Shown here one piece after another: positions 1-12,576 of a stretch of 35,271 nucleotides of DNA. The stretch is from a virus. Position 1 is the first letter of the stretch, and each line of letters begins with the position of its first letter. The notes under the pieces were generated by a model, which did no database searches, was not told where the DNA came from, and saw only the letters and a program-made list of their open reading frames with translations. The stretch covers positions 1-35,271 of the IMG/VR virus record IMGVR_UViG_3300014720_000087. One strand, given 5' to 3'. The position numbers and the translations under genes were made by a program.

Positions 1-2558
1 GTTAGATCAGCTACGTTTGCTTTGGTACTTAGATTCGCATCGAAACGAATTTCTTTCGGATCGGATGTAGCATTAGTAGTAATTGAAAGAAAATTACCAG
101 GAACAAATCTAACTGTATCTAATCCTGTTGCTACTAAATTTGCCTGACCTAAGACATTCCAAGTCTTAAAGGTCGAATTCATCTGTACTTTGGCTATACC
201 ATTTGCTCTATCTACAACATCAAAACCTGAATCAGATTCGAATTGAATGGTACGAACATTGGCAACAGATACCGATGCTACATTGGATGCATCAACTAAT
301 TCTACCTTAAGCGCAGATGTTATTAAACCGGTAACTGCATCATAGTTAATACCATTTGCTGAAGTGATAGCACTACGAGCTCTTGCATTGGTAAAGAATA
401 GATTTGTACTTTCAATAACATTTGAAGAATACAAATTCTGATACACATTAGCATAAACTATATTAGCTACCACAGCATTTGGTATTGATACATTTCCTGC
501 AGTATCAAAGGTGAAAATTGCAGTATTTGCTGTGATTGTAGTGTTAGTGCCGGTACCTAGATATAAACTAGCTACTACGTTGCCAACTGCTATGACGTTA
601 TTAAAGGTTACATTTGCTGTTGTTGCTACATTCTGACCAATAGCAATTGTAGGATTTATTCCTTCACCGCCATTATTAGTTACCGATACACCTGTTCCTG
701 CAGTAATATTTGCAACGTAATCACCGGTGGTATCCGTTCCTAATGTGACAGAATTAGGTTGAATTGTTGTTGAAATCTGTAACGTATTACCTCTTAGATT
801 ATTAAGAGATACGTTAGCTGTACCCGTTACGTCTCCGGATAAGGTTACATTAACAAAAGGATCACGATTAATAGTAGTTGCAAAAAGAGTGCCTGATACA
901 TCTAAACTCTTATTAGTTGTCCATTTGTCGCCAGATGAGGCATAATTGAATGTGGCACCTGCACCATCTATAGTAATGCCTGCGCCATCAGCAGCAGCTG
1001 CACTAACTGCGCCATTTGCTAATAATATGTTTTTATCTTCGACTAAAACTGTTTCAGTATTAAGAGTAATTGTGTTGCCCTGAACCAACAAATTACCCGT
1101 TATAATCGCATCACCGTCGATTGTAACGCTGGTTGCAGTTATATCATTACTTAATAATTTACCTGATACAGTAACGTTAGCAAATGTAACATCTGATGTA
1201 GTTTCTACTGGTTGCCCGATAGCAATTGTTGGTGTTGCACCTTCATTACCAAGATTAGTTAGAGTAACACCGGTTCCTGCAACAATATTTTGTAGATATG
1301 CGCCAGATGTTTCTGTTCCAAGTACAATATCACCAAATGCCACATTTGATGCTCTTGTTACTCTACCATAAGAATCAACATCAAATGTAGGAACAATTCT
1401 TGAAGAACCATATGTCGTAGCAACAACCCCAGATGGTGTGAGTGTTATATTACCTGTTACTGGATTAAATGATATAGTGTTGCCCGATGATAACGATGCA
1501 TATACTCTGGCATTGGAAAAATAAACATTTCCAGAAGTAGTATCACCAGATTCAATAATATTAGAAGTGAAAATTAATGTTCTAGCGGGATTGCCATTTG
1601 GATCCAACAACTTGAATAATCCGCCCTCATATTTTATAGCAGCCCCACCAATATCAATTGTAGAACCACTTAAAAATATATTACTAAATCTGTGTGTTGC
1701 ATTACCAATTGAAAATGTTACATTCTGTCTTGGTATGATGTTGCCTGCATAAAATATGCCTGTAGAAGTAATATCACCAAAAGTAACATTTGATGTGGTT
1801 CCAACATTTTGACCAATAGAAACTGTTGGTGTTGCACCTTCATTACCAAGATTAGTTAAAGTGACACCGGTTCCTGCAACTAGATTACCTACATACGCGC
1901 CTGTAGTATCAGTTCCAAGTCTAATTGAATCTGTTCTGATGTTGGCAATGAATGTATTACCATCTGCTGTAGAGATAGTAAAAGAATTACCAGAGGAAGT
2001 AAAGCTTGATACACCCGCTACCGTCACATTAGATGCAGAAGTTAATCTACCTTTCTGATCTACTACGAAAACAGGTATTTGTGAAGAACCACCATAGGTT
2101 GCAGGAGTGACTGCTGTGTCGGCTAGTGCTATAGTAACATTAGCTAATTCGCCGCCTTGATTTGTAACATTGATACCAGAACCAGCAATGACGTTATTGA
2201 CATAATCACCAACGGTATCTGTTCCAAGTCTTATTGAGTTTACCTGAATATTGGCATAGAAGTTACTTCCGGTACTGGTAGATAGAACAAAGCTATTACC
2301 AGATACTGTGAAATTAGAGATGCCTGAAACTGGTGTATTGCCGGCAAAAAGCAATAAACCGTTTGGCATAACGGTGAATACTGCTACATTGCTTGAACCA
2401 CCATAAGTACCAGCAACGACTCCTGTTTCTAGCGTAGAAAAACTACCGGTAGGGCCTTGAGGACCCTCCGGACCCGCAGGGCCTGCTGGACCCTGCGTAC
2501 CACCTTTGTTAATTATTACTTGTGCTGATTTTTGTTTAGTAGCTATTACTACTGTCAT
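1..2558 (-). CDS. Modular tail-fibre-like protein, 3' end outside window
   Basis: The frame is open from an ATG at 2558 to the window edge (852 codons), so the C-terminus is missing. Residues 23-38 are collagen-like triplets (GPAGPAGPEGPQGPTG). The rest is beta-rich NVT/NIT repeat sequence with modules such as TYGGSSQIPVFVVDQKGRLT, LGTETSGAY and NLFFTNARARSAI, which are typical of fibres in T4-like marine phages. The same modules occur in the fibre at 10396-12576. Its start overlaps the stop of the upstream gene as ATGA. I infer a trimeric fibre or fibre-associated structural protein used in host contact. Receptor and exact position on the virion cannot be read from sequence. Confidence 0.8.
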   Translation of the reverse strand, partial: MTVVIATKQKSAQVIINKGGTQGPAGPAGPEGPQGPTGSFSTLETGVVAGTYGGSSNVAVFTVMPNGLLLFAGNTPVSGISNFTVSGNSFVLSTSTGSNFYANIQVNSIRLGTDTVGDYVNNVIAGSGINVTNQGGELANVTIALADTAVTPATYGGSSQIPVFVVDQKGRLTSASNVTVAGVSSFTSSGNSFTISTADGNTFIANIRTDSIRLGTDTTGAYVGNLVAGTGVTLTNLGNEGATPTVSIGQNVGTTSNVTFGDITSTGIFYAGNIIPRQNVTFSIGNATHRFSNIFLSGSTIDIGGAAIKYEGGLFKLLDPNGNPARTLIFTSNIIESGDTTSGNVYFSNARVYASLSSGNTISFNPVTGNITLTPSGVVATTYGSSRIVPTFDVDSYGRVTRASNVAFGDIVLGTETSGAYLQNIVAGTGVTLTNLGNEGATPTIAIGQPVETTSDVTFANVTVSGKLLSNDITATSVTIDGDAIITGNLLVQGNTITLNTETVLVEDKNILLANGAVSAAAADGAGITIDGAGATFNYASSGDKWTTNKSLDVSGTLFATTINRDPFVNVTLSGDVTGTANVSLNNLRGNTLQISTTIQPNSVTLGTDTTGDYVANITAGTGVSVTNNGGEGINPTIAIGQNVATTANVTFNNVIAVGNVVASLYLGTGTNTTITANTAIFTFDTAGNVSIPNAVVANIVYANVYQNLYSSNVIESTNLFFTNARARSAITSANGINYDAVTGLITSALKVELVDASNVASVSVANVRTIQFESDSGFDVVDRANGIAKVQMNSTFKTWNVLGQANLVATGLDTVRFVPGNFLSITTNATSDPKEIRFDANLSTKANVADL
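1228..1283. repeat. 56-base direct repeat, copy 1 (fibre module)
   Basis: This stretch matches 1825-1880 at 54 of 56 bases; the two differences lie near the right end (agagtaac versus aaagtgac). Both copies lie in the same coding frame of the left-edge fibre and encode the module VTLTNLGNEGATPT, so this is an internal gene duplication. Confidence 0.85.
1825..1880. repeat. 56-base direct repeat, copy 2 (fibre module)
   Basis: Second copy of the repeat at 1228-1283, spaced 597 bases (199 codons) from it, which keeps the frame. A more diverged third version can be seen around 640-715 (GINPTIAIGQ module). Confidence 0.85.
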
Positions 2559-3348: not shown

Positions 3349-3356
3349 TATTTATT
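3349..3356 (-). promoter_or_regulatory. Possible late promoter box AATAAATA
   Basis: AATAAATA reads leftward 19 bases upstream of the ATG at 3330, overlapping the stop of the oxygenase gene. It fits the relaxed NATAAATA late consensus, but the leader would be short and the region is AT-rich. Confidence 0.35.
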
Positions 3357-4008
3357 TATCTAAATCTAAACCTGTTAGATCCATATCTTCACCTACCTTA
3401 CCTACTAAAAAGGTATTGAATGATAAAGAAACTCTTGTTTTGTCTGCGTTAACTGTTTCTACCATATGCTCAAGTGTTGATGGAAACAGATACAAGGTAC
3501 CTTTAACTGCTTCAAACCACCATGATTCACTATTCCAAATATTCCAATTGCTTGGTGGTAACTTAAGAACATCTACTCTACCATTATAAAAATAAATTTT
3601 ATCTGTTTCAGTAGATTGAATATAGTAAACACCTGAAATAAAAGAATTTGGATGACGATGTTTATGATGATACTGTCCTTTTTTGGTGTAATTAACCCAG
3701 GACTGAGTAATTCTTAAACTAACATCATATTTTGGACTGTAAACCTCATGGAAAAACATATTCAATTTTAGTTCTAATGCTTTTCTAAAGGTTGCTAATT
3801 CATCATTATCTAAAATTTTATTGTCAACACTGGTAGTGTTTCCCATATTATTTCTTTGAGGTTGGTCAAGTAAAAATTTCATCTCTTTTTTACTTAACTT
3901 GTGCTCTACTCCATAACTACCTACTGGAGTTGGAAATAAATTGTGTATAGTCGATTTTTGTGGAAATTCAAAAATGTTCGGTGAAATAGGTACAATAACA
4001 TCACTCAC
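3352..4008 (-). CDS. 2OG-Fe(II) oxygenase (2OG-FeII_Oxy_5 type)
   Basis: A 218-residue protein with the pattern of the PF13759 oxygenase family: a conserved Phe/Pro/Thr/Pro start (LFPTPVGSYGV), QSWVNYTKKGQYHHKHRHPN with probable iron ligands H117 and H119, then SFISGVYYIQS, distal H181 in LFPSTLEHMVE, and R192 in TRVSLSFN for the 2-oxoglutarate carboxylate. All expected catalytic positions are present, so it should be active. The family hydroxylates unknown substrates and is common among fibre genes of T4-like cyanophages. It overlaps the upstream 98-residue gene by 4 bases. Modification of a virion protein is an inference from location. Confidence 0.8.
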   Translation of the reverse strand: MSDVIVPISPNIFEFPQKSTIHNLFPTPVGSYGVEHKLSKKEMKFLLDQPQRNNMGNTTSVDNKILDNDELATFRKALELKLNMFFHEVYSPKYDVSLRITQSWVNYTKKGQYHHKHRHPNSFISGVYYIQSTETDKIYFYNGRVDVLKLPPSNWNIWNSESWWFEAVKGTLYLFPSTLEHMVETVNADKTRVSLSFNTFLVGKVGEDMDLTGLDLDK

Positions 4009-4652: not shown

Positions 4653-6743
4653 TTACAATAGGAAAGCAGCCGATGGCGGCGTGAAGCTGCTGGTGTATCG
4701 GGCAATGCCTTTAGTGATGCGTAGGTCGTCGATGTAGCCGTTTAATGCTCTTCCACCGTTCTTTTGATACCCAATATAAGCACAATCAAAAGATCCCGTA
4801 ATGCTTGAAGTATTTCCACCAACTGCGCCATTCAGGTATATTTTGGTTGTCCCTGAACTTCTAACAACGGCAACATGGCCCCATGTGTTAGCGGACAACG
4901 ATGAAGGCGCGTCAATAAGTTTTGAATACCCTGATGCCGTATCTGTCGAACTGCAAATCACCGCATAGGTGGCTGCACTGTCTGTAATTAAAATTGATGA
5001 TGTAGAAGACGCCCAGTAAACCGAAGGTGTCAAACTTGATGCCCAATAGAGCCAAAACTCAATCGTAAAATCTCCGCCACCAACTTTAATTGACTCGGCA
5101 GTCGGCATTATCAAATAATCCCCCGTCCCATCAAAGTACATCGACGCCCCACCAAACTTTGACTGCGTAGTGCTGATCTGCGCGTTGCCTACGGTAACCA
5201 AATCGTTCTTGGCTGTGCTGTCGATTATGCCTGCGTTGGTGAAGTTGAGGAGCAGGGAGGTATTGGTAATTGCCGTGAGGGGTGCTGTTGGTGGCGTAAA
5301 CGTCGTGCCACTTGGATAGACGCAAGTTCCTTTTACAAACCGCAAGCTTGCAACATAGCCCTTGAAGTATTCTGCGTTTAATTCTCCCGGCCTACCAATT
5401 CCAACTTGATAACTTGAGTCAAACACAGACTGCGTAGAAATTGTTCCGTTCGTTCCGTCTTGGACGCCGTTTATATAAAGACGAAGTGTCGATCCGTTAC
5501 GCACAAACGCAATATGGTTCCATTGATTTACAACTAAGTCGGCACTACTTGTTGCGTCATAAGCGGTAGTGCTTACAAGGACTCTTCCGATTGCTTTATT
5601 TGCAGATGTGGTTCCCAGAACAAATGAAACATTGTTACCACTGCTATCAGCCTGAGCAATAATTCGCTGCTGACCAGATCCGGTCCAATACGCCCAACAT
5701 TCAATCGTAAAATCTCCGCTTCCAAGTGTAAATGCCGCGTTATCCGGCACCGTCAAATAATCCCCACTCCCATCAAAGTACCCGCTGCCACCGACCGTTG
5801 CTGCACTATACGCCGCTGTGGGGTTGAATGGGGAGAAGGCTTGGACGGTTGGCGCACCATTGACCGAAATTGGGAGGGCCGAACTTGAATTGTCTATCCA
5901 CCTGTTGCTTTGCAATGTAAGCAGCGTGGTTCCTGAAATAGCCGTTAACGGACCGGTTGGCGGAGTAAACGCTGCGGTGTAAACAGCAGTGCCTTTAACG
6001 ATTCTTAGGTTTGAAATGTTTCCGTTGAACTGACGATCACCACTAGAGAAATAAGACAGATTAGCGATCCTGTTTGTTGAACCGCAAGAATAATTAACCG
6101 AGTCTGATGTGGACGCAAGCGACGTTCCGTTAATATAAATGCTGGTGGTTCCACTATTCCTGACAATTGCGATATGAAGCCAAGTATTTAAGGATACAGT
6201 TGAAGTGGTGAATGACCCTGTTCCGTTGTCCCAATAAACGGTTTGGTTTGAAAGACCGAAATTAAAGTACGCTCCATTCGTTCCTGTCGGACGAACGTCC
6301 ATGATTACGTTTTCACTGCCCCCTGAAGACCCAACAGTAGTGAAGTAGGCCCAGCACTCAACCGTAAAATCGCCCGTGCCTAGTTGTAAAGCCGCGCTGC
6401 TACCCATTTGCAAATAGTCGCTGCTTCCAGTGCAACCGCCCAAGCTCCACCCCGTCTGGCTAAATGGGCTGAAGGTGCCTTGGGTCGTATCGCCGTTGCG
6501 GGTGATCGTGAGAGGGCTGGAGCTTGAATCAAGGAACGTGTTGTTTTGTGCGCCGTTTGTGCCATCCCCCGGCAAAAGCAAGGTGGTATAATTAAAGTAC
6601 GTGTCAGATGTCGAAACTGCAGGAGCACCGGTCCATGTACCTAGTTTTCTTAATAAAAATTGATTTACAGCAGTGTGGACACCTTGTTGATTATTAGTAG
6701 TAGGTGTCTTATCAATACCTATAAATCCACTATTATAACGCAT
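4653..6743 (-). CDS. Tail adhesin with three LamG/concanavalin A-like domains
   Basis: A 696-residue protein with three LamG-type repeats at about residues 107-265, 320-488 and 533-690. Each has GDFT(V/I)E(C/F)W, a W..(H/G)(I/V)A(I/V/F)VR core, (I/L)Y(I/L)NG and a closing LR(I/F).KG...Y...FTPP. Such jelly-roll domains usually bind glycans, so this is a likely host-surface adhesin. The N-terminal 40 residues (MRYNSGFIGIDKTPTTNNQQ onward) look like a virion attachment segment and are AT-rich like the neighbours. From about 6620 down to 4653 the DNA is much GC-richer (sampled 60-base lines at 55-63 percent against 22-37 percent nearby), suggesting a recently acquired adhesin body. The start overlaps the upstream stop as TAATG. 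Confidence 0.85.
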   Translation of the reverse strand: MRYNSGFIGIDKTPTTNNQQGVHTAVNQFLLRKLGTWTGAPAVSTSDTYFNYTTLLLPGDGTNGAQNNTFLDSSSSPLTITRNGDTTQGTFSPFSQTGWSLGGCTGSSDYLQMGSSAALQLGTGDFTVECWAYFTTVGSSGGSENVIMDVRPTGTNGAYFNFGLSNQTVYWDNGTGSFTTSTVSLNTWLHIAIVRNSGTTSIYINGTSLASTSDSVNYSCGSTNRIANLSYFSSGDRQFNGNISNLRIVKGTAVYTAAFTPPTGPLTAISGTTLLTLQSNRWIDNSSSALPISVNGAPTVQAFSPFNPTAAYSAATVGGSGYFDGSGDYLTVPDNAAFTLGSGDFTIECWAYWTGSGQQRIIAQADSSGNNVSFVLGTTSANKAIGRVLVSTTAYDATSSADLVVNQWNHIAFVRNGSTLRLYINGVQDGTNGTISTQSVFDSSYQVGIGRPGELNAEYFKGYVASLRFVKGTCVYPSGTTFTPPTAPLTAITNTSLLLNFTNAGIIDSTAKNDLVTVGNAQISTTQSKFGGASMYFDGTGDYLIMPTAESIKVGGGDFTIEFWLYWASSLTPSVYWASSTSSILITDSAATYAVICSSTDTASGYSKLIDAPSSLSANTWGHVAVVRSSGTTKIYLNGAVGGNTSSITGSFDCAYIGYQKNGGRALNGYIDDLRITKGIARYTSSFTPPSAAFLL

Positions 6744-7325: not shown

Positions 7326-7706
7326 TTACTGTGTTGGAAAAGGTGGCCAAACAACCTCTTCAGGTGAACTAAATTTTAATTCTATAGATCTTAAGTTGCG
7401 AATATATTTATAAATTTTTGTTTTAAAATCTGAATCTACTACATCTTCAATAGTTTCAAATTTATAATTAGATGCGTTACAATTAGGGCAATGCAAAGTA
7501 TTTTTTAATTCTTTACTGGTCTGTCCACTAAATGAAGTATCACATTCATTACATACTGCAGTAAAACTAACATCCCACGCATTCACATAATTATTAAAAA
7601 CTTCGTCTAATAATCTATCTTTTTCTCTTGAAACATCATCCCATATTTCATCTAATACAACCGAATTTATAAGATCAACTTCGATATATTTACTTACGTA
7701 ACGCAT
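7326..7706 (-). CDS. Zinc-ribbon protein with chaperone-like C-terminus
   Basis: A 126-residue protein with a predicted zinc knuckle: C52-x2-C55 (CNEC) and C73-x2-C76 (CPNC). The C-terminal stretch YKYIRNLRSIELKFSSPEE followed by VVWPPFP resembles the end of the next gene's product (YRNDLRNITNQQDPFNVVWP). That ending is a signature of phage tail-fibre assembly chaperones. I read it as a diverged chaperone-like protein carrying an inserted zinc ribbon. No catalytic motif is visible. It lies one base from the chaperone-like gene at 7708-8130 and so probably acts on the same fibres. The zinc site and the chaperone role are both predictions. Confidence 0.5.
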   Translation of the reverse strand: MRYVSKYIEVDLINSVVLDEIWDDVSREKDRLLDEVFNNYVNAWDVSFTAVCNECDTSFSGQTSKELKNTLHCPNCNASNYKFETIEDVVDSDFKTKIYKYIRNLRSIELKFSSPEEVVWPPFPTQ

Positions 7707-7707
7707 T

Positions 7708-8130
7708 TTAGATCGGTGCTGTTGGCCAAACTACGTTAAAGGGATCTTGTTGATTAGTAATATTGCGAAGATCGTTTCGATAAACTGCCCAATTATTTTT
7801 CCATTCATCACTTTTAGAACCAACTGCTGATGGTAATTCGGTCCAATCACTATTTCTTAATTTCTCGTTTCTTTCTAATCTAACTAGATTCCATTGTACT
7901 GCTTCGAAATTATTTTTTACTTCTGCTAATTGTGATAAATTTGCACCATCTGCGAGAACTTGTTCCTCGGTTAAAAATCCAAAATTGTGTCCGGCATAAT
8001 TCAGATCATTGAAGTTGCCTTCAAATTCATCTGTTAAACCAGTAATATTTCTCCAAGTTTCAGGTATAGGTCCATAACTTATTGCTAATTTATTGGTTTT
8101 GTCGAAACAGTAAAATAATTTTGTGGACAT
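7708..8130 (-). CDS. Tail-fibre assembly chaperone-like protein
   Basis: A 140-residue protein. Residues 84-139 carry the signature of phage tail assembly chaperones of the PF16778 type: RLERNEKLRNSDWTELPSA, then W..YR..LR.IT.Q.DPF and VVWPTAP. In that family the pattern is R..RN.LL..SDWT..PD, W..YRQ.LRD....FP, V.WP..P. The N-terminal part (MSTKLFYCFDKTNKLAISYG) is less conserved. Such proteins assist folding or trimerisation of fibres. It starts directly after the DUF6065-like gene (no gap) and precedes the zinc-ribbon gene. Which fibre it serves is unknown; the NVT-rich fibre at 10396-12576 is the nearest upstream candidate. Confidence 0.65.
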   Translation of the reverse strand: MSTKLFYCFDKTNKLAISYGPIPETWRNITGLTDEFEGNFNDLNYAGHNFGFLTEEQVLADGANLSQLAEVKNNFEAVQWNLVRLERNEKLRNSDWTELPSAVGSKSDEWKNNWAVYRNDLRNITNQQDPFNVVWPTAPI

Positions 8131-8865
8131 TTAATCCTCTTTAACTTCTTTTCGTTTTTCCCTTAGTTCATGTGTATAAACATGGTGCCTTGTTTGTTGC
8201 CTAAGGTGTAAATCTGCTACTATCTTTTTTTCTTTTGCAGTAATGGCTCTAGGTTTAGTTTCTTCTTTTAAAACACTTCGCTTTACTGGTATTACTTGTA
8301 CTAATGGAGTACCGGCTTCAACCAAAGCATCATAATTGGGCACATGCCAAACTGCAGGAAAATTAATCTGTTTCAAATATTTATCAGTATCAACTAATCC
8401 TCCTAGGCACGTAAACCGTTTTTCAAAATGATTTATTGGAGTTACGAATAACGATGACCAACCTGGAGCAGTTTTTATAATCCAATTGTTTATGAATTTA
8501 ATTGGTGCGGAAAGACCCCCTGGCCAAGATGTACCTCCCACTTGATCTAAAGAATGAAACTCAGCTTGCTTATATAAAGGAGTACCGCCTAATTCTATAT
8601 TTTTTAAATCTGCACTTGTTCTTATATTAATATCGCCCTGAAGAGGTATAATCCAACCTGCTGTCATGGCATCCAACATAGGCAAACATTTTTTAGCTGT
8701 CATGCCTTTGGAATTAAATTGGTCTCTGCCATTGTTATATGGTTTAATATTCTTGTACCATTTGGGAACATGCTTTACCGCTGGCTCCGGCTCTGGTATG
8801 TTTCCAAATAAATGTTCTTCACAATAAAATTCAATAGTAGGATCGCTATAGAAAAGCTTTAACAT
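8131..8865 (-). CDS. DUF6065-like protein of unknown function
   Basis: A 244-residue protein with PKWYKNIKPY, KKCLPMLDAMTAGWIIPLQG, NWIIKTAPGWSSLFVTPINH, GGLVDTDKYLKQINFP and GTPLVQVIPVKR. The order CLP..A...GW, then a TPPG(W/Y) segment, then G.V(D/E)TD, resembles the family catalogued as DUF6065, though the match is by eye and distant. The C-terminus is a long charged helix (RAITAKEKKIVADLHLRQ and a Lys/Arg/Glu-rich tail). No known catalytic triad is obvious. It overlaps the P4H-like oxygenase gene by 7 bases, so the pair is very likely co-translated and may act on the same substrate. Function is not known. Confidence 0.5.
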   Translation of the reverse strand: MLKLFYSDPTIEFYCEEHLFGNIPEPEPAVKHVPKWYKNIKPYNNGRDQFNSKGMTAKKCLPMLDAMTAGWIIPLQGDINIRTSADLKNIELGGTPLYKQAEFHSLDQVGGTSWPGGLSAPIKFINNWIIKTAPGWSSLFVTPINHFEKRFTCLGGLVDTDKYLKQINFPAVWHVPNYDALVEAGTPLVQVIPVKRSVLKEETKPRAITAKEKKIVADLHLRQQTRHHVYTHELREKRKEVKED

Positions 8866-9455
8866 ATTCTATCACCTACGCACCATCCTACTAAACTTTT
8901 TCTTTCACCCTTGGTAACAGGTTTCACTCTATGAGGATAAAAGCTTTTAAATAAAAGCACTTGTCCTTTTTCCATTCTAAATAATTTAGACTTATTCACA
9001 TTTCCATTAAATATAACTTCAAATTCTCCACCTTCATATTCATTTGGATCACTTAAACACATAGAAAAACTAAGTTTTCTATCTTGAGGTTGAGAATTTA
9101 AATATGAGTCAAAATGCCAATCATAATGTTGATTAGAATCAGCATTATATTTAGTATATTGTAATACTTGCAAATAATCTAGTTGCATCCAAAACGACTG
9201 ATGATTTATTTGTGAAACTAAATCGACAAATCTTTTATATATCCATTCTGTTTGGTTTTTAATAGATAACCAAGAAATAGTACTATCTCTAGTTTCCAAA
9301 TCCAATTTACTGTAGTTGGTTTCCCCTACTCTAGCTGCCTCAAATTTTTCAAGTTCACACAAATCTACAATCTGGTCTACTTCGTCATTGGTAAATAAAT
9401 TCTCCCATAGAACCATCGGTGGTAAATTGGGAGTAAACAAAGGTATTCTGTACAT
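8859..9455 (-). CDS. 2OG-Fe(II) oxygenase, prolyl-4-hydroxylase-like
   Basis: A 198-residue double-stranded beta-helix enzyme of the P4H/PKHD type. Iron ligands H114 and D116 lie in HYDWHFDSYLNS, distal H175 in LLFKSFYPHRVKPV, and R185 in TKGERKSLVGW is placed to bind 2-oxoglutarate. A typical EGGEFEV turn sits at 141-147. All cofactor residues are present. The family hydroxylates proline or lysine residues or other small substrates. The gene follows the proline/glycine-rich protein at 9458-10396 with a 2-base gap and overlaps the DUF6065-like gene. Hydroxylation of that neighbour is an attractive inference, not shown by the sequence. Confidence 0.85.
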   Translation of the reverse strand: MYRIPLFTPNLPPMVLWENLFTNDEVDQIVDLCELEKFEAARVGETNYSKLDLETRDSTISWLSIKNQTEWIYKRFVDLVSQINHQSFWMQLDYLQVLQYTKYNADSNQHYDWHFDSYLNSQPQDRKLSFSMCLSDPNEYEGGEFEVIFNGNVNKSKLFRMEKGQVLLFKSFYPHRVKPVTKGERKSLVGWCVGDRIC

Positions 9456-9457
9456 AA

Positions 9458-10396
9458 TTAATCAAATGTTATAGTAACACTGCCTCCTGAGGGAACGGTT
9501 ATGGATAAATTAGTTTGGTTAGGACCAACTGTTGGTAAAAATACTGGAGTACCAGATACTGCTGGAGCATTTCCTGCTACCGGTCCTCCGGGGAACGTAA
9601 CTCCCAGCACCGAAAAAGGAGATCCAGCATTACCCGAGGATGACGGGTTAGGTGGATTAGGTGTAGGGGGATTAGTGTTTTCATAACCAGGTGCAATTAT
9701 TGGATTGCCTGGATTTTCTCCTCCGGGATAAGGTGTCGGTGGAGTTGGATTCCCTGGTGTTGGGTTATTCCCCGGGGAACCCGGAGATGTATAATCATAA
9801 TAGTAGTATAATCCTATTCCACATGGTTCAGCAAGGGTGTTGATATAAAAGGTTCCGACACCACCTCTAAACCCTTCACCTGGGGAATCTACAGGATTGC
9901 TAGTACCTGGTTTTAAAGTTTCATTAAAATCAGCAGAATTTGTAACCAAATTATTACCAAGAATAAACCCCGGCCAATTACTTGTGGCAGGGGCAGATAA
10001 TGACGAAGCGTTTACTTGAAATTCATTTCCAAATGCTTGTACACAATTACTAGTTTGAGGTCCTACAGTATGTACTAAGGTGTTGTAGGTATATGTTGTG
10101 GATGTTCCTGGATTGCCTGGTGTAGGAGGATTTGGTGGATTAGAGTTTTCACCACCTGGATAAGGTTCAGGTGGATTGGATCCTACCGGATACGGCGGAT
10201 TAAAATTTCCTGTTGGGTTGCCTGGCGATGCAGGAGTAGGATTCCCAGGCACATTGGGATTGCCCGGAACACCTTGTCCGTATATGCTAATAGAATTTTT
10301 ACCAAAAGGAACAGAAAGATTACCAGAACTATTGAATGTAGCAGTCTTTCTTTCTATTCTCCAAGTTTTATCCTTAGTTACATTTCTAAATAACAT
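9458..10396 (-). CDS. Pro/Gly/Asn-rich virion protein with two repeat blocks
   Basis: A 312-residue protein with an N-terminal beta segment (FNSSGNLSVPFGKNSISIYG), low-complexity PGNP/NPP blocks at residues 43-96 and 204-252, a central globular part (about 100-200), and a C-terminal strand ending SVTITFD. Both blocks contain YPGGEN followed by NPP or PGNP, so they look duplicated. The blocks should form extended polyproline-like linkers, not a true Gly-X-Y collagen helix. The start overlaps the stop of the fibre at 10396-12576 (TAATG). I infer a fibre-associated or spike-like structural protein. The adjacent oxygenase may modify its prolines. Confidence 0.65.
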   Translation of the reverse strand: MLFRNVTKDKTWRIERKTATFNSSGNLSVPFGKNSISIYGQGVPGNPNVPGNPTPASPGNPTGNFNPPYPVGSNPPEPYPGGENSNPPNPPTPGNPGTSTTYTYNTLVHTVGPQTSNCVQAFGNEFQVNASSLSAPATSNWPGFILGNNLVTNSADFNETLKPGTSNPVDSPGEGFRGGVGTFYINTLAEPCGIGLYYYYDYTSPGSPGNNPTPGNPTPPTPYPGGENPGNPIIAPGYENTNPPTPNPPNPSSSGNAGSPFSVLGVTFPGGPVAGNAPAVSGTPVFLPTVGPNQTNLSITVPSGGSVTITFD

Positions 10397-12576
10397 TACG
10401 CCTTAGCATCCTTGCTTGCAAGTGTTCCAATATAAGAAGTTCCTGAATCATATGTAAAGAATGTCCAAACATCTATAGCGCTCACATTACTTGTTCTTGG
10501 TGGAATATTTGAAGCACCACCTGCCCATTTTACTGTACCTGGCCATGAAATAGTATTACCGGCAAAAGAATTGAATGTAATTAATGAAAAGCTACCTAAT
10601 CTATTTGTGGGAGGATTGCTAAAAGTAAACGTCTTGTTACTATTTATTACACAGAAAAATACACCCGAGTCCAATAGATTAAGATCAATCGTAGTAGTAC
10701 CAGCTGCAGCTGTAACGTTACTTACATATTCTGAGTAAGTTCTAAATAATGCATTTCCTGATATATTGACATTAGATACGATTATATTCGAAGCAGTAAT
10801 AGAAGATACTGTGGTAGCACCAAATGCAGTATTTAAAGAAATGTTCCCAGCATATGTCACATGTCCAGTAGTATTTACAGTAAAAACACCTATTTGATCA
10901 TTGCCGCCATATGTCGATGCTGATACACCGGAGGTTGCATGTGTTAGTTGAACATTGCCTGTAGAGACATTTGCTAAAATAGGACTAACATTAGATAAAT
11001 TTACAACACCAGTATTTGTCAATGTGACTATTGCACTTTCTGATCCGGATCCCGCAACACCTATTCCCAGTCCGCCCAACATCGTAGCGATATAATTACC
11101 AGAAGTTTCTGAACCCAATACTATATCACCAACTGATACGTTTGATGCAGATACTATTCTACCCTGAGCATTTACATTAATAACAGGAATAATTCTAGAA
11201 GAACCATAAACTGAAGCTACAACGCCGGTGTCGGTTAATGCTGATACCGCGACGTTTGCTGCAGATGTTATTCTACCCTGTTGGTCGACGGTAATAACTG
11301 GAACATTAGTTGTACCACCATATGTATCAGCAGTTACCGTAACATTTGGTATATTAGCAGTGAAGGAACTGCCATCTGCTGTGGAAATTACAAAAAATCT
11401 ATTATTAGAACTAAATGATGTTACTCCTGCTACATTAACATTTGCTGCAGAAGTAATTCTTCCATCTGTTCCTACTACGAAGACTGGTACCTTTGATGTA
11501 CCACCATATGTAGTTGATGCCACTCCTGTTGCTGGTAGATCAACTTGAGTAAATGTTCCTCTTGTTGCAGTAATATTACCAGCAGTAACATTTCCGCTAA
11601 ATCTTCCTTGCACAGATACTACAGCTGATCCACCTGGTTGTGAGGCGTTTTCCGCAATCACGTTATAAACGTTAATATTACCTGTGATGTTTTGACTGCC
11701 TACTGTGGTTGTAGTGCCTGAAACAATAATATTACCAACAGTAATATTACCAGCAATATTTACGTTACCACCAACAACTAAATTACCTGAGAAATAACCT
11801 GTTGCTGCGTTTACTCTGTCTATTGCATTAATATTGCCTTTGTCCAAAAGGACATTACCTATATTAGCAAAATTGAAAGAGCCTCGTGTACCAACTATAG
11901 CAGTTGCAGATACATTACCAAATGTTGCATTGCCTGTTGCAGAAATATTACCTGTTACTGTTGCCTCACCTGTAATTAATCTACCAGCAACAGTAATATT
12001 ACTAATGGCTACGTTACCTAATAAAGAATTAAGTATTGTAACATTACCAACAGTTAAATTTGCTGTCACATTTGCATCAGTAACTACTAATAAACCATCA
12101 TTCAATAAAGAGGCATTACCCAATCCAAGGGTAACTCTAACATTTGTAGCATCCGTATCATCAAGTAAGGTTCTGGCAAATGATGACAAAGTAGTACCAG
12201 ATGCACTGGATGCTCCAGTGTAATAAACTATTCTGTCAGCTGCCGGTGTTACTGTTGATATAACATCTAATGCCGAATCCCATGCTTGCACATTGGTACC
12301 AATTGTTAAACCTAAATTAGTTCTTGCTGCAACCGGTGTGCTTGCACCTGTACCTCCATCTGCAACTGCAAGATCGGTGATACCTGTTATAGTACCGCCT
12401 TTGATATTAATATTGGTTACATTGCCAAGATGAGTACTGTTACCTAAAAAAGTATAGATATCAAAGAAATTGTTGTTTGTCTTTTCAAATGCAGTTCTTA
12501 AGGCATCACCGTCTCCGCTATTAGCTGCGGTGCCTATATTTACATTTGAATACGAATTACCATTGAAAATAGACAT
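10396..12576 (-). CDS. Modular NVT-rich tail fibre
   Basis: A 726-residue fibre. The N-terminus (NIGTAANSGDGDALRTAFEK, then TNNNFFDIYTFLG) is the attachment-like segment common in marine T4-like fibres. GGTGASTPVAARTNLGL at about 74-90 is a widespread phage fibre repeat. Four YGG..xxPV..V...GR(I/V)(T/V) modules lie at about 355-380, 417-441, 455-480 and 554-580. The C-terminus (NKTFTFSNPP, ISWPGTVKWAGG, DVWTFFTYDSGTSYIGTLA) is the usual beta-structured fibre tip domain. It lies directly after the baseplate genes, where T4 carries fibre genes. It likely contacts the host surface. Confidence 0.8.
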   Translation of the reverse strand: MSIFNGNSYSNVNIGTAANSGDGDALRTAFEKTNNNFFDIYTFLGNSTHLGNVTNINIKGGTITGITDLAVADGGTGASTPVAARTNLGLTIGTNVQAWDSALDVISTVTPAADRIVYYTGASSASGTTLSSFARTLLDDTDATNVRVTLGLGNASLLNDGLLVVTDANVTANLTVGNVTILNSLLGNVAISNITVAGRLITGEATVTGNISATGNATFGNVSATAIVGTRGSFNFANIGNVLLDKGNINAIDRVNAATGYFSGNLVVGGNVNIAGNITVGNIIVSGTTTTVGSQNITGNINVYNVIAENASQPGGSAVVSVQGRFSGNVTAGNITATRGTFTQVDLPATGVASTTYGGTSKVPVFVVGTDGRITSAANVNVAGVTSFSSNNRFFVISTADGSSFTANIPNVTVTADTYGGTTNVPVITVDQQGRITSAANVAVSALTDTGVVASVYGSSRIIPVINVNAQGRIVSASNVSVGDIVLGSETSGNYIATMLGGLGIGVAGSGSESAIVTLTNTGVVNLSNVSPILANVSTGNVQLTHATSGVSASTYGGNDQIGVFTVNTTGHVTYAGNISLNTAFGATTVSSITASNIIVSNVNISGNALFRTYSEYVSNVTAAAGTTTIDLNLLDSGVFFCVINSNKTFTFSNPPTNRLGSFSLITFNSFAGNTISWPGTVKWAGGASNIPPRTSNVSAIDVWTFFTYDSGTSYIGTLASKDAKA
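10837..11514. repeat. Four tandem-like YGG/GRIT fibre modules
   Basis: Coding repeats of about 40-100 residues within the fibre. Module starts read TTYGGTSKVPVFVV, DTYGGTTNVPVITV, SVYGSSRIIPVINV and STYGGNDQIGVFTV. The same modules appear in the left-edge fibre (about 1340-2420), including the shared ISTADG segment. Confidence 0.75.

What the first reader, a model, noticed from the sequence alone, without database searches (positions are those of the whole stretch)
8859..10396. P4H-like oxygenase next to a proline-rich repeat protein: possible fibre hydroxylation pair
The oxygenase has an intact H114/D116/H175/R185 set and starts 2 bases after the stop of a protein with two PGNP/NPP blocks (residues 43-96 and 204-252). 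Prolyl hydroxylases act on exactly such proline-rich segments, and viral collagen-modifying enzymes are known from giant and chlorella viruses. The gene order suggests enzyme and substrate in one operon, which would be an unusual post-translational modification of a phage virion protein.
Basis: inference. Interest (0 to 1): 0.7.

Follow-up and report, generated by a model that had tools for sequence, protein, structure and literature searches.

The report
Phage tail adhesin with prolyl-hydroxylase-like enzyme
A T4-like phage carries a prolyl-hydroxylase-like enzyme directly behind a proline-rich tail-fibre protein, and this pairing turns out to be a recurring module in (mostly marine) phages, which suggests that these phages chemically modify their host-binding fibres.

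Summary
On the minus strand, a 312-aa protein with two segments of 37% proline (10396..9458) is followed after 2 bp by a 198-aa 2OG-Fe(II) oxygenase (9455..8859) with H114, D116, H175 and R185, all invariant in 39 relatives. The enzyme's predicted fold is closest to bacterial and HIF prolyl hydroxylases. The proline-rich protein sits in a tail-fibre locus, and its N-terminus is weakly homologous to Gly/Pro-rich phage proteins that also adjoin such oxygenases.

The pairing is not a one-off. A search blind to the oxygenase, for PGNPxxPGNP coding, found an oxygenase within 4 kb in 18 of 30 loci, against 0 of 48 off-frame controls. Anchoring on an unrelated tail-fibre gene, 37 of 37 loci with a P/G-rich gene just downstream carried oxygenases, against 4 of 13 without. 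Classical (GPQ)n collagen-like phage genes mostly lack them (7 of 71).

I infer that the oxygenase hydroxylates the adhesin, most likely at prolines. Substrate, residue and chemistry are untested. Distant members of the family occur elsewhere, for example next to UvsW. I found no paper making this link; published readings are auxiliary metabolism or DNA repair.

The parts
9458..10396 (-). Pro/Asn/Gly-rich putative tail adhesin, 312 aa; PGNP/NPP segments at residues 43-96 and 204-252; presumed substrate
   Evidence: no Pfam or PHROG match; N-terminal ~23-aa motif matches Gly/Pro-rich phage proteins next to oxygenases, E=3e-4 with the repeat region removed; low nonsynonymous change in the Pro segments
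8859..9455 (-). 2OG-Fe(II) oxygenase, prolyl-hydroxylase-like fold, H114/D116/H175/R185
   Evidence: PF13640 E=6e-17, phrog_61 E=9e-38; catalytic residues invariant in 39 sequences; AlphaFold2 pLDDT 90.8; Foldseek best hit P. putida P4H 4iw3, TM 0.77
10396..12576 (-). tail fibre protein, 726 aa, directly upstream
   Evidence: phrog_24210 E=1e-15 and phrog_9017, both tail fibre
8131..8865 (-). DUF6065 protein; same family recurs in related cassettes; function unknown
   Evidence: PF19541 E=2e-11, phrog_7084 E=2e-55; DUF6065 in 13% of adhesin-oxygenase loci
7708..8130 (-). tail fibre assembly chaperone
   Evidence: PF16778 Phage_tail_APC E=2e-12, phrog_4912 E=1e-14
7326..7706 (-). small protein with Cys-pair (zinc-ribbon-like) region and chaperone-like C-terminus; last gene of the block shared with L001
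   Evidence: weak PF16778 and zinc-ribbon matches; homology to L001 ends at 7336
3352..4008 (-). second 2OG-Fe(II) oxygenase of another subfamily, in the next fibre module
   Evidence: PF13759 E=2e-20, phrog_81 E=6e-47
4653..6743 (-). fibre or structural protein with three LamG-type domains; takes the place of the collagen-like module of L001
   Evidence: PF13385 E=8e-58, three stretches

Best explanation
The two genes are the core of a tail-fibre module: an adhesin rich in Pro, Asn and Gly, and an Fe(II)/2-oxoglutarate oxygenase that modifies it in the infected cell before the fibre is assembled. The most likely reaction is hydroxylation of prolines in the PGNP/XPG segments, which would stiffen or stabilise polyproline-II or triple-helix-like rods or change how the tip binds its receptor. 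Shown: gene identity, intact catalytic residues, prolyl-hydroxylase-like predicted fold, tail-fibre setting, and specific recurrent co-occurrence with P/G-rich fibre proteins. Inferred: that the adhesin is the substrate (about 70%), that the residue is proline (about 50% overall), and the physical effect.
For: Oxygenase-blind search for PGNPxxPGNP coding: 18/30 non-redundant loci have an oxygenase within 4 kb, against 0/48 loci with the same DNA match outside a PGNP-coding gene, p=4e-10; with GC<0.55, 16/21 against 0/26. Anchored on an unrelated fibre gene: 37/37 loci with a P/G-rich downstream gene have oxygenases, against 4/13 without, p=3e-7. Specificity: (GPQ)n collagen-like genes, 7/71. 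Layout fibre - P/G-rich protein - chaperone-like gene - oxygenases, also in cultured phages S-RSM4, HTVC023P and 023Pt_psg01. Window and L001 are collinear and then diverge; beyond the break the fibre type and the oxygenase subfamily change together. Best fold hits are prolyl hydroxylases, including viral collagen hydroxylase vCPH and algal P4H with (Ser-Pro)5. Across 92 adhesins next to oxygenases Pro is 1.6-fold and Asn 1.3-fold enriched, while Lys, Asp and His are depleted (0.33-, 0.39- and 0.37-fold).
Against: No biochemical or mass-spectrometric evidence. Partners are usually Gly-rich with only about 7% Pro on average, so Pro need not be the common target. Several different oxygenase subfamilies share one adhesin, so the residue for each is open. 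Distant members of the same family occur without a P/G-rich neighbour. Modules are inherited as blocks, so the loci are not independent. The closest fold match hydroxylates EF-Tu, not a fibre.
Confidence: 0.55

Rival explanations
1. The oxygenase modifies the adhesin, but at residues other than proline (for example Asn, Ser, Thr or Tyr), as one of several enzymes that decorate it.
For: Partner proteins are Gly-rich with modest Pro; up to 8 oxygenases of different subfamilies, plus Trp halogenase, DUF6445 and sulfotransferase genes, lie in the same cassettes. Asn is also enriched.
Against: The fold of this enzyme is closest to prolyl hydroxylases, and its own partner is the most Pro-rich of the set, with the Pro segments the most conserved at the protein level.
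Confidence: 0.2
2. The enzyme acts on a host protein, for example EF-Tu as P. putida prolyl hydroxylase does, and its position beside the adhesin is incidental.
For: Best Foldseek hit is P. putida P4H in complex with EF-Tu, TM 0.77.
Against: Does not explain the specific link to P/G-rich adhesins in two oxygenase-blind searches, nor the replacement of oxygenases together with fibres. Fold similarity to PHD2 and algal P4H is about as good.
Confidence: 0.1
3. Auxiliary metabolic or signalling role: drawing on 2-oxoglutarate to tune nitrogen or carbon metabolism, or DNA repair, as proposed for cyanophage oxygenases.
For: Published proposal (PMC3037559); some relatives lie next to uvsW/uvsY.
Against: Those relatives are distant subfamilies; the window clade lies in fibre modules. 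A generic 2OG sink would not need several subfamilies or a fixed place beside adhesins.
Confidence: 0.07
4. Hitch-hiking: fibre loci are hypervariable insertion sites, and oxygenases are carried there as unrelated cargo.
For: Fibre regions are mosaic; other cargo (DUF6065, halogenase) is present.
Against: The same fibre backbone without the P/G-rich gene mostly lacks oxygenases (4/13 against 37/37), and (GPQ)n fibre-like genes mostly lack them (7/71). Cargo independent of the adhesin should not track adhesin type.
Confidence: 0.08

Closest known systems
Phage 2OG-Fe(II) oxygenase family phrog_61 / Pfam PF13640 (2OG-FeII_Oxy_3)
   Same: Sequence family (E=9e-38 and 6e-17); widespread in marine cyanophages and pelagiphages (355 records)
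   Different: PHROGs files it as moron or auxiliary metabolic gene; the link to adhesins is not part of the family description
Bacterial prolyl hydroxylase PPHD of Pseudomonas putida (PDB 4iw3, 4j25)
   Same: Closest fold, TM 0.77 over 195 columns
   Different: About 20% identity; substrate is EF-Tu; not phage-encoded and not linked to a fibre
Viral collagen prolyl hydroxylase vCPH of chlorella virus PBCV-1 (PDB 5c5t)
   Same: Virus-encoded, prolyl-hydroxylase fold match TM 0.65-0.66, proposed to act on Pro-rich repeat proteins
   Different: Virus of a eukaryote; 14-16% identity; sequence profile match E=3e-10 only
Bacillus anthracis prolyl-4-hydroxylase
   Same: Bacterial enzyme active on (PPG)n peptides (PMC8968730); profile match E=7e-11
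   Different: Cellular gene; not in a phage fibre module
PKHD-type hydroxylases (PiuC, Sbal_3634)
   Same: Closest solved structures by sequence profile, E=3e-18 to 2e-16 over the catalytic core
   Different: Longer proteins, iron-uptake setting; only the core half aligns
Gly-rich (polyglycine-II) tail-fibre adhesins such as gp38 of T-even-like phages
   Same: Gly-rich fibre-tip-like proteins next to fibre and chaperone genes (recalled from general knowledge; not compared here)
   Different: No oxygenase partner is known to me there; homology to gp38 was not tested

Membership tests
2OG-Fe(II) oxygenase superfamily | HxD...H iron-binding triad | tested here: met
   H114, D116, H175 present and invariant in 39 sequences
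2OG-Fe(II) oxygenase superfamily | basic residue for the 2OG carboxylate about 10 residues after the distal His | tested here: met
   R185 invariant
2OG-Fe(II) oxygenase superfamily | double-stranded beta-helix fold | tested here: met
   AlphaFold2 pLDDT 90.8; 442 PDB matches at E<=0.001, the listed ones being members
Prolyl hydroxylase (PHD/P4H) subfamily | closest structural relatives are prolyl hydroxylases | tested here: met
   ranks 1-3 P. putida P4H; PHD2, algal P4H, vCPH follow; PKHD types interspersed
Prolyl hydroxylase (PHD/P4H) subfamily | Lys as 2OG-binding residue, as in collagen-type P4H | tested here: not met
   Arg at 185, as in PHD/EGLN and PKHD types (residue usage in those families from general knowledge)
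Prolyl hydroxylase (PHD/P4H) subfamily | hydroxylates peptidyl proline | not testable with these tools
   needs an enzyme assay or mass spectrometry
Collagen-like protein | uninterrupted Gly-X-Y triplets | tested here: not met
   Window protein has PGNP/NPP segments without a regular Gly every third residue; several partners elsewhere do have GNPGNPG runs
Gly/Pro-rich phage adhesins next to oxygenases (group defined here) | shared N-terminal motif | tested here: met
   E=2e-7 with, 3e-4 without the start of the repeat; best of 2000 shuffles 9.0 bits against 21.3
Gly/Pro-rich phage adhesins next to oxygenases (group defined here) | shared C-terminal motif | tested here: not met
   no match of the window C-terminus beyond L001
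Tail-tip adhesin | present in the virion at the fibre tip | not testable with these tools
   inferred from neighbours only: fibre upstream, chaperone downstream

The most novel reading that the evidence does not exclude
Many phages, mostly marine, carry adhesin-decorating cassettes: a Gly/Pro-rich tail adhesin with its own set of 2OG oxygenases, and at times a halogenase or sulfotransferase, that hydroxylate or otherwise modify the adhesin and so set or diversify receptor binding by chemistry as well as by sequence. This would explain why marine phages hold so many 2OG oxygenases.
Probability: 0.45. Interest if true: 0.88.

Novelty: new variant of a known kind. Interest (0 to 1): 0.68.

Why it matters
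Marine phages carry many 2OG-Fe(II) oxygenases without a known substrate (up to five per cyanophage genome in PMC3037559; 76 of 153 cyanophage genomes in PMC10452541), usually explained as auxiliary metabolism or DNA repair. A tight and specific link to P/G-rich fibre proteins offers a concrete alternative, modification of the receptor-binding fibre. It can be tested directly by mass spectrometry of virions of cultured phages (HTVC008M, HTVC023P, S-RSM4). If true, it adds enzymatic hydroxylation to the ways phages build and vary their adhesins.

Tried and rejected
Search for the Pro-rich protein in annotated phages: no match (low-complexity filtering may contribute). AlphaFold2 of the Pro-rich protein: pLDDT 28.8, unusable, so no fold search was made. 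Homology of its C-terminus and middle domain to other adhesins: none beyond L001, although the C-terminus looked similar by eye. A first version of the PGNP co-occurrence count used a wrong reverse-strand pattern and gave 7/30; corrected. Generic link between oxygenases and any collagen-like phage protein: rejected, (GPQ)n loci have few. Treating the whole family as adhesin-linked: rejected, the cyanophage-type clade and the UvsY/UvsW-linked member lie elsewhere. Lysine hydroxylation as main activity: made unlikely by the scarcity of Lys in the adhesins. Literature searches for proline hydroxylation of phage virions or fibre modification by oxygenases or halogenases found nothing pertinent; the library is open-access only.

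Full report
Observation. The window is a 35,271-bp viral record with T4-like baseplate, neck and tube genes. Its baseplate wedge protein is closest to those of pelagiphages and methylophages at about 40% identity. On the minus strand the order is: tail fibre (12576..10396), Pro-rich protein (10396..9458), oxygenase (9455..8859), DUF6065 protein (8865..8131), tail fibre chaperone (8130..7708) and a small protein (7706..7326).

The enzyme. It belongs to PF13640 and phrog_61. Across 39 relatives from environmental virus contigs, H114, D116, H175 and R185 are invariant, as are Y103, Y111 and W191. The AlphaFold2 model is confident (pLDDT 90.8). Its best Foldseek matches are P. putida prolyl hydroxylase (with EF-Tu, TM 0.77), PKHD-type hydroxylases, HIF prolyl hydroxylases, algal P4H with a (Ser-Pro)5 peptide, and the chlorella virus collagen hydroxylase. 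By sequence profile the nearest solved structures are PKHD-type hydroxylases and then bacterial and algal P4Hs. A fold of this type makes a peptidyl hydroxylase plausible; it does not fix the substrate.

The Pro-rich protein. It has no Pfam or PHROG match, no annotated phage homologue, and one close homologue in IMG/VR. Between the two copies the Pro-rich segments differ by 53 synonymous and 5 nonsynonymous codons, the middle domain by 47 and 20 (p=0.003), so the Pro-rich segments are maintained by selection. A short N-terminal motif (residues 18-40) matches that of Gly/Pro-rich phage proteins, E=3e-4 after removing the repeat. This is weak but specific: the window copy scores 21.3 bits and the best of 2000 shuffles 9.0. 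No C-terminal or middle-domain match was found. Its structure could not be modelled.

Co-occurrence tests. Two searches did not use the oxygenase as bait. First, the DNA pattern for PGNPxxPGNP was scanned through IMG/VR. After clustering, 18 of 30 loci with a gene encoding the motif have a 2OG oxygenase within 4 kb, against 0 of 48 loci that match the same DNA pattern without such a gene (p=4e-10). Limited to GC below 0.55, the numbers are 16/21 and 0/26. Second, loci were collected by a conserved tail-fibre N-terminus. Of 50 non-redundant loci with enough downstream sequence, all 37 with a P/G-rich gene just after the fibre have at least one oxygenase, against 4 of 13 without (p=3e-7). As a specificity control, phage loci encoding classical (GPQ)n collagen-like repeats have an oxygenase nearby in 7 of 71 cases, against 16 of 21 for PGNP (p=1e-8). 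These tests treat clustered loci as independent, which they are not fully, and use a simple gene finder of my own. The p-values are therefore guides, not exact.

Cassette structure. The typical order is fibre, P/G-rich protein, a small chaperone-like gene, then several oxygenases. Over 92 distinct adhesins the mean is 2.9 oxygenases within six genes; 61% of loci have the chaperone-like gene, 22% DUF6445, 13% DUF6065, 10% a tryptophan halogenase and 4% a sulfotransferase-like gene (families identified). Cultured phages with a P/G-rich gene near oxygenases include S-RSM4, HTVC023P, HTVC008M, 023Pt_psg01 and ACG-2014b; in HTVC008M the oxygenases and the P/G-rich gene are on opposite strands. The oxygenase tree places the window enzyme in a group of 19 in which 18 have a P/G-rich neighbour, but the branch is weakly resolved (93/84) and sampling was enriched for such loci.

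A natural comparison. The window and contig L001 are collinear at 82% nucleotide identity from the fibre through the Pro-rich protein, oxygenase, DUF6065 and both small genes, and then diverge abruptly at window position 7336. Beyond it, L001 has two other oxygenases and a 397-aa GNPGNAG-rich protein, while the window has a LamG fibre and an oxygenase of another subfamily. Fibre type and oxygenases change together. This is one case only.

Limits and exceptions. Distant family members lie in other settings: between uvsY and uvsW in S-SSM2, and in the tail region without a P/G-rich gene in the cyanophage-type clade L037-L080, P-SSM7 and S-SCSM1.

Mechanism. The best reading is modification of the adhesin by the adjacent oxygenase. 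Proline is favoured for this enzyme because of its fold, its very Pro-rich and conserved partner, and the excess of Pro-Gly pairs in it (16 against 7.2 expected). X-Pro-Gly is the site of animal collagen P4H (general knowledge). Lys, Asp and His, targets of other 2OG hydroxylases, are scarce in the adhesins. Asn is also enriched, and modest Pro content in most partners leaves other residues open. No step of the reaction has been shown.

Comparison with what is known. Phage 2OG oxygenases are common and have been read as auxiliary metabolism, nitrogen signalling or DNA repair (PMC3037559; PMC10452541), and their similarity to human EGLN3 was noted recently (PMC12774648). Collagen modification is known in giant viruses, and Bacillus P4H acts on collagen-like peptides (PMC8968730). 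I found no report that links phage oxygenases to tail adhesins, but the library lacks most subscription journals and preprints, so the novelty is provisional. Verdict: real and specific association, plausible and testable mechanism, new variant of a known kind.

Noticed in passing
window 3352-4008 (-): A second 2OG-Fe(II) oxygenase (PF13759, phrog_81) in the next fibre module, downstream of a triple-LamG fibre protein (4653-6743).
   Followed up: partly
window 1-2558 (-): 852-aa fibre-like ORF whose N-terminus holds a short collagen-like run (GTQGPAGPAGPEGPQGPTG); it runs off the window end.
   Followed up: no
L001 5248 / window 7336: Abrupt end of collinearity between two related phages; beyond it the fibre type and the oxygenase subfamilies differ together.
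   Followed up: yes
L017 7235-8719, L026 6089-7585, L192, L194, L197, L240, L250: Tryptophan halogenase genes (PF04820 tested for L017) inside adhesin-oxygenase cassettes; a possible fibre-modifying role for phage halogenases.
   Followed up: partly
L015 4334-5086; L198, L207, L237, L247: Sulfotransferase-like genes (PF00685/PF13469 tested for L015) in the same cassettes.
   Followed up: no
window 8131-8865 (-); L078 6488-7108; L231, L263, L265: DUF6065 proteins recur next to oxygenases in different phages; function unknown.
   Followed up: partly
L085 9022-9570: In cyanophage S-SSM2 a distant relative lies between UvsY and UvsW, which suggests a different role for that subfamily.
   Followed up: no
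L023 4014-10842: A run of about nine genes of 2OG oxygenase type in one contig, downstream of a Gly-rich protein.
   Followed up: partly
window 7326-7706 (-): Small protein combining Cys pairs (CNEC...CPNC) with a chaperone-like C-terminus.
   Followed up: no
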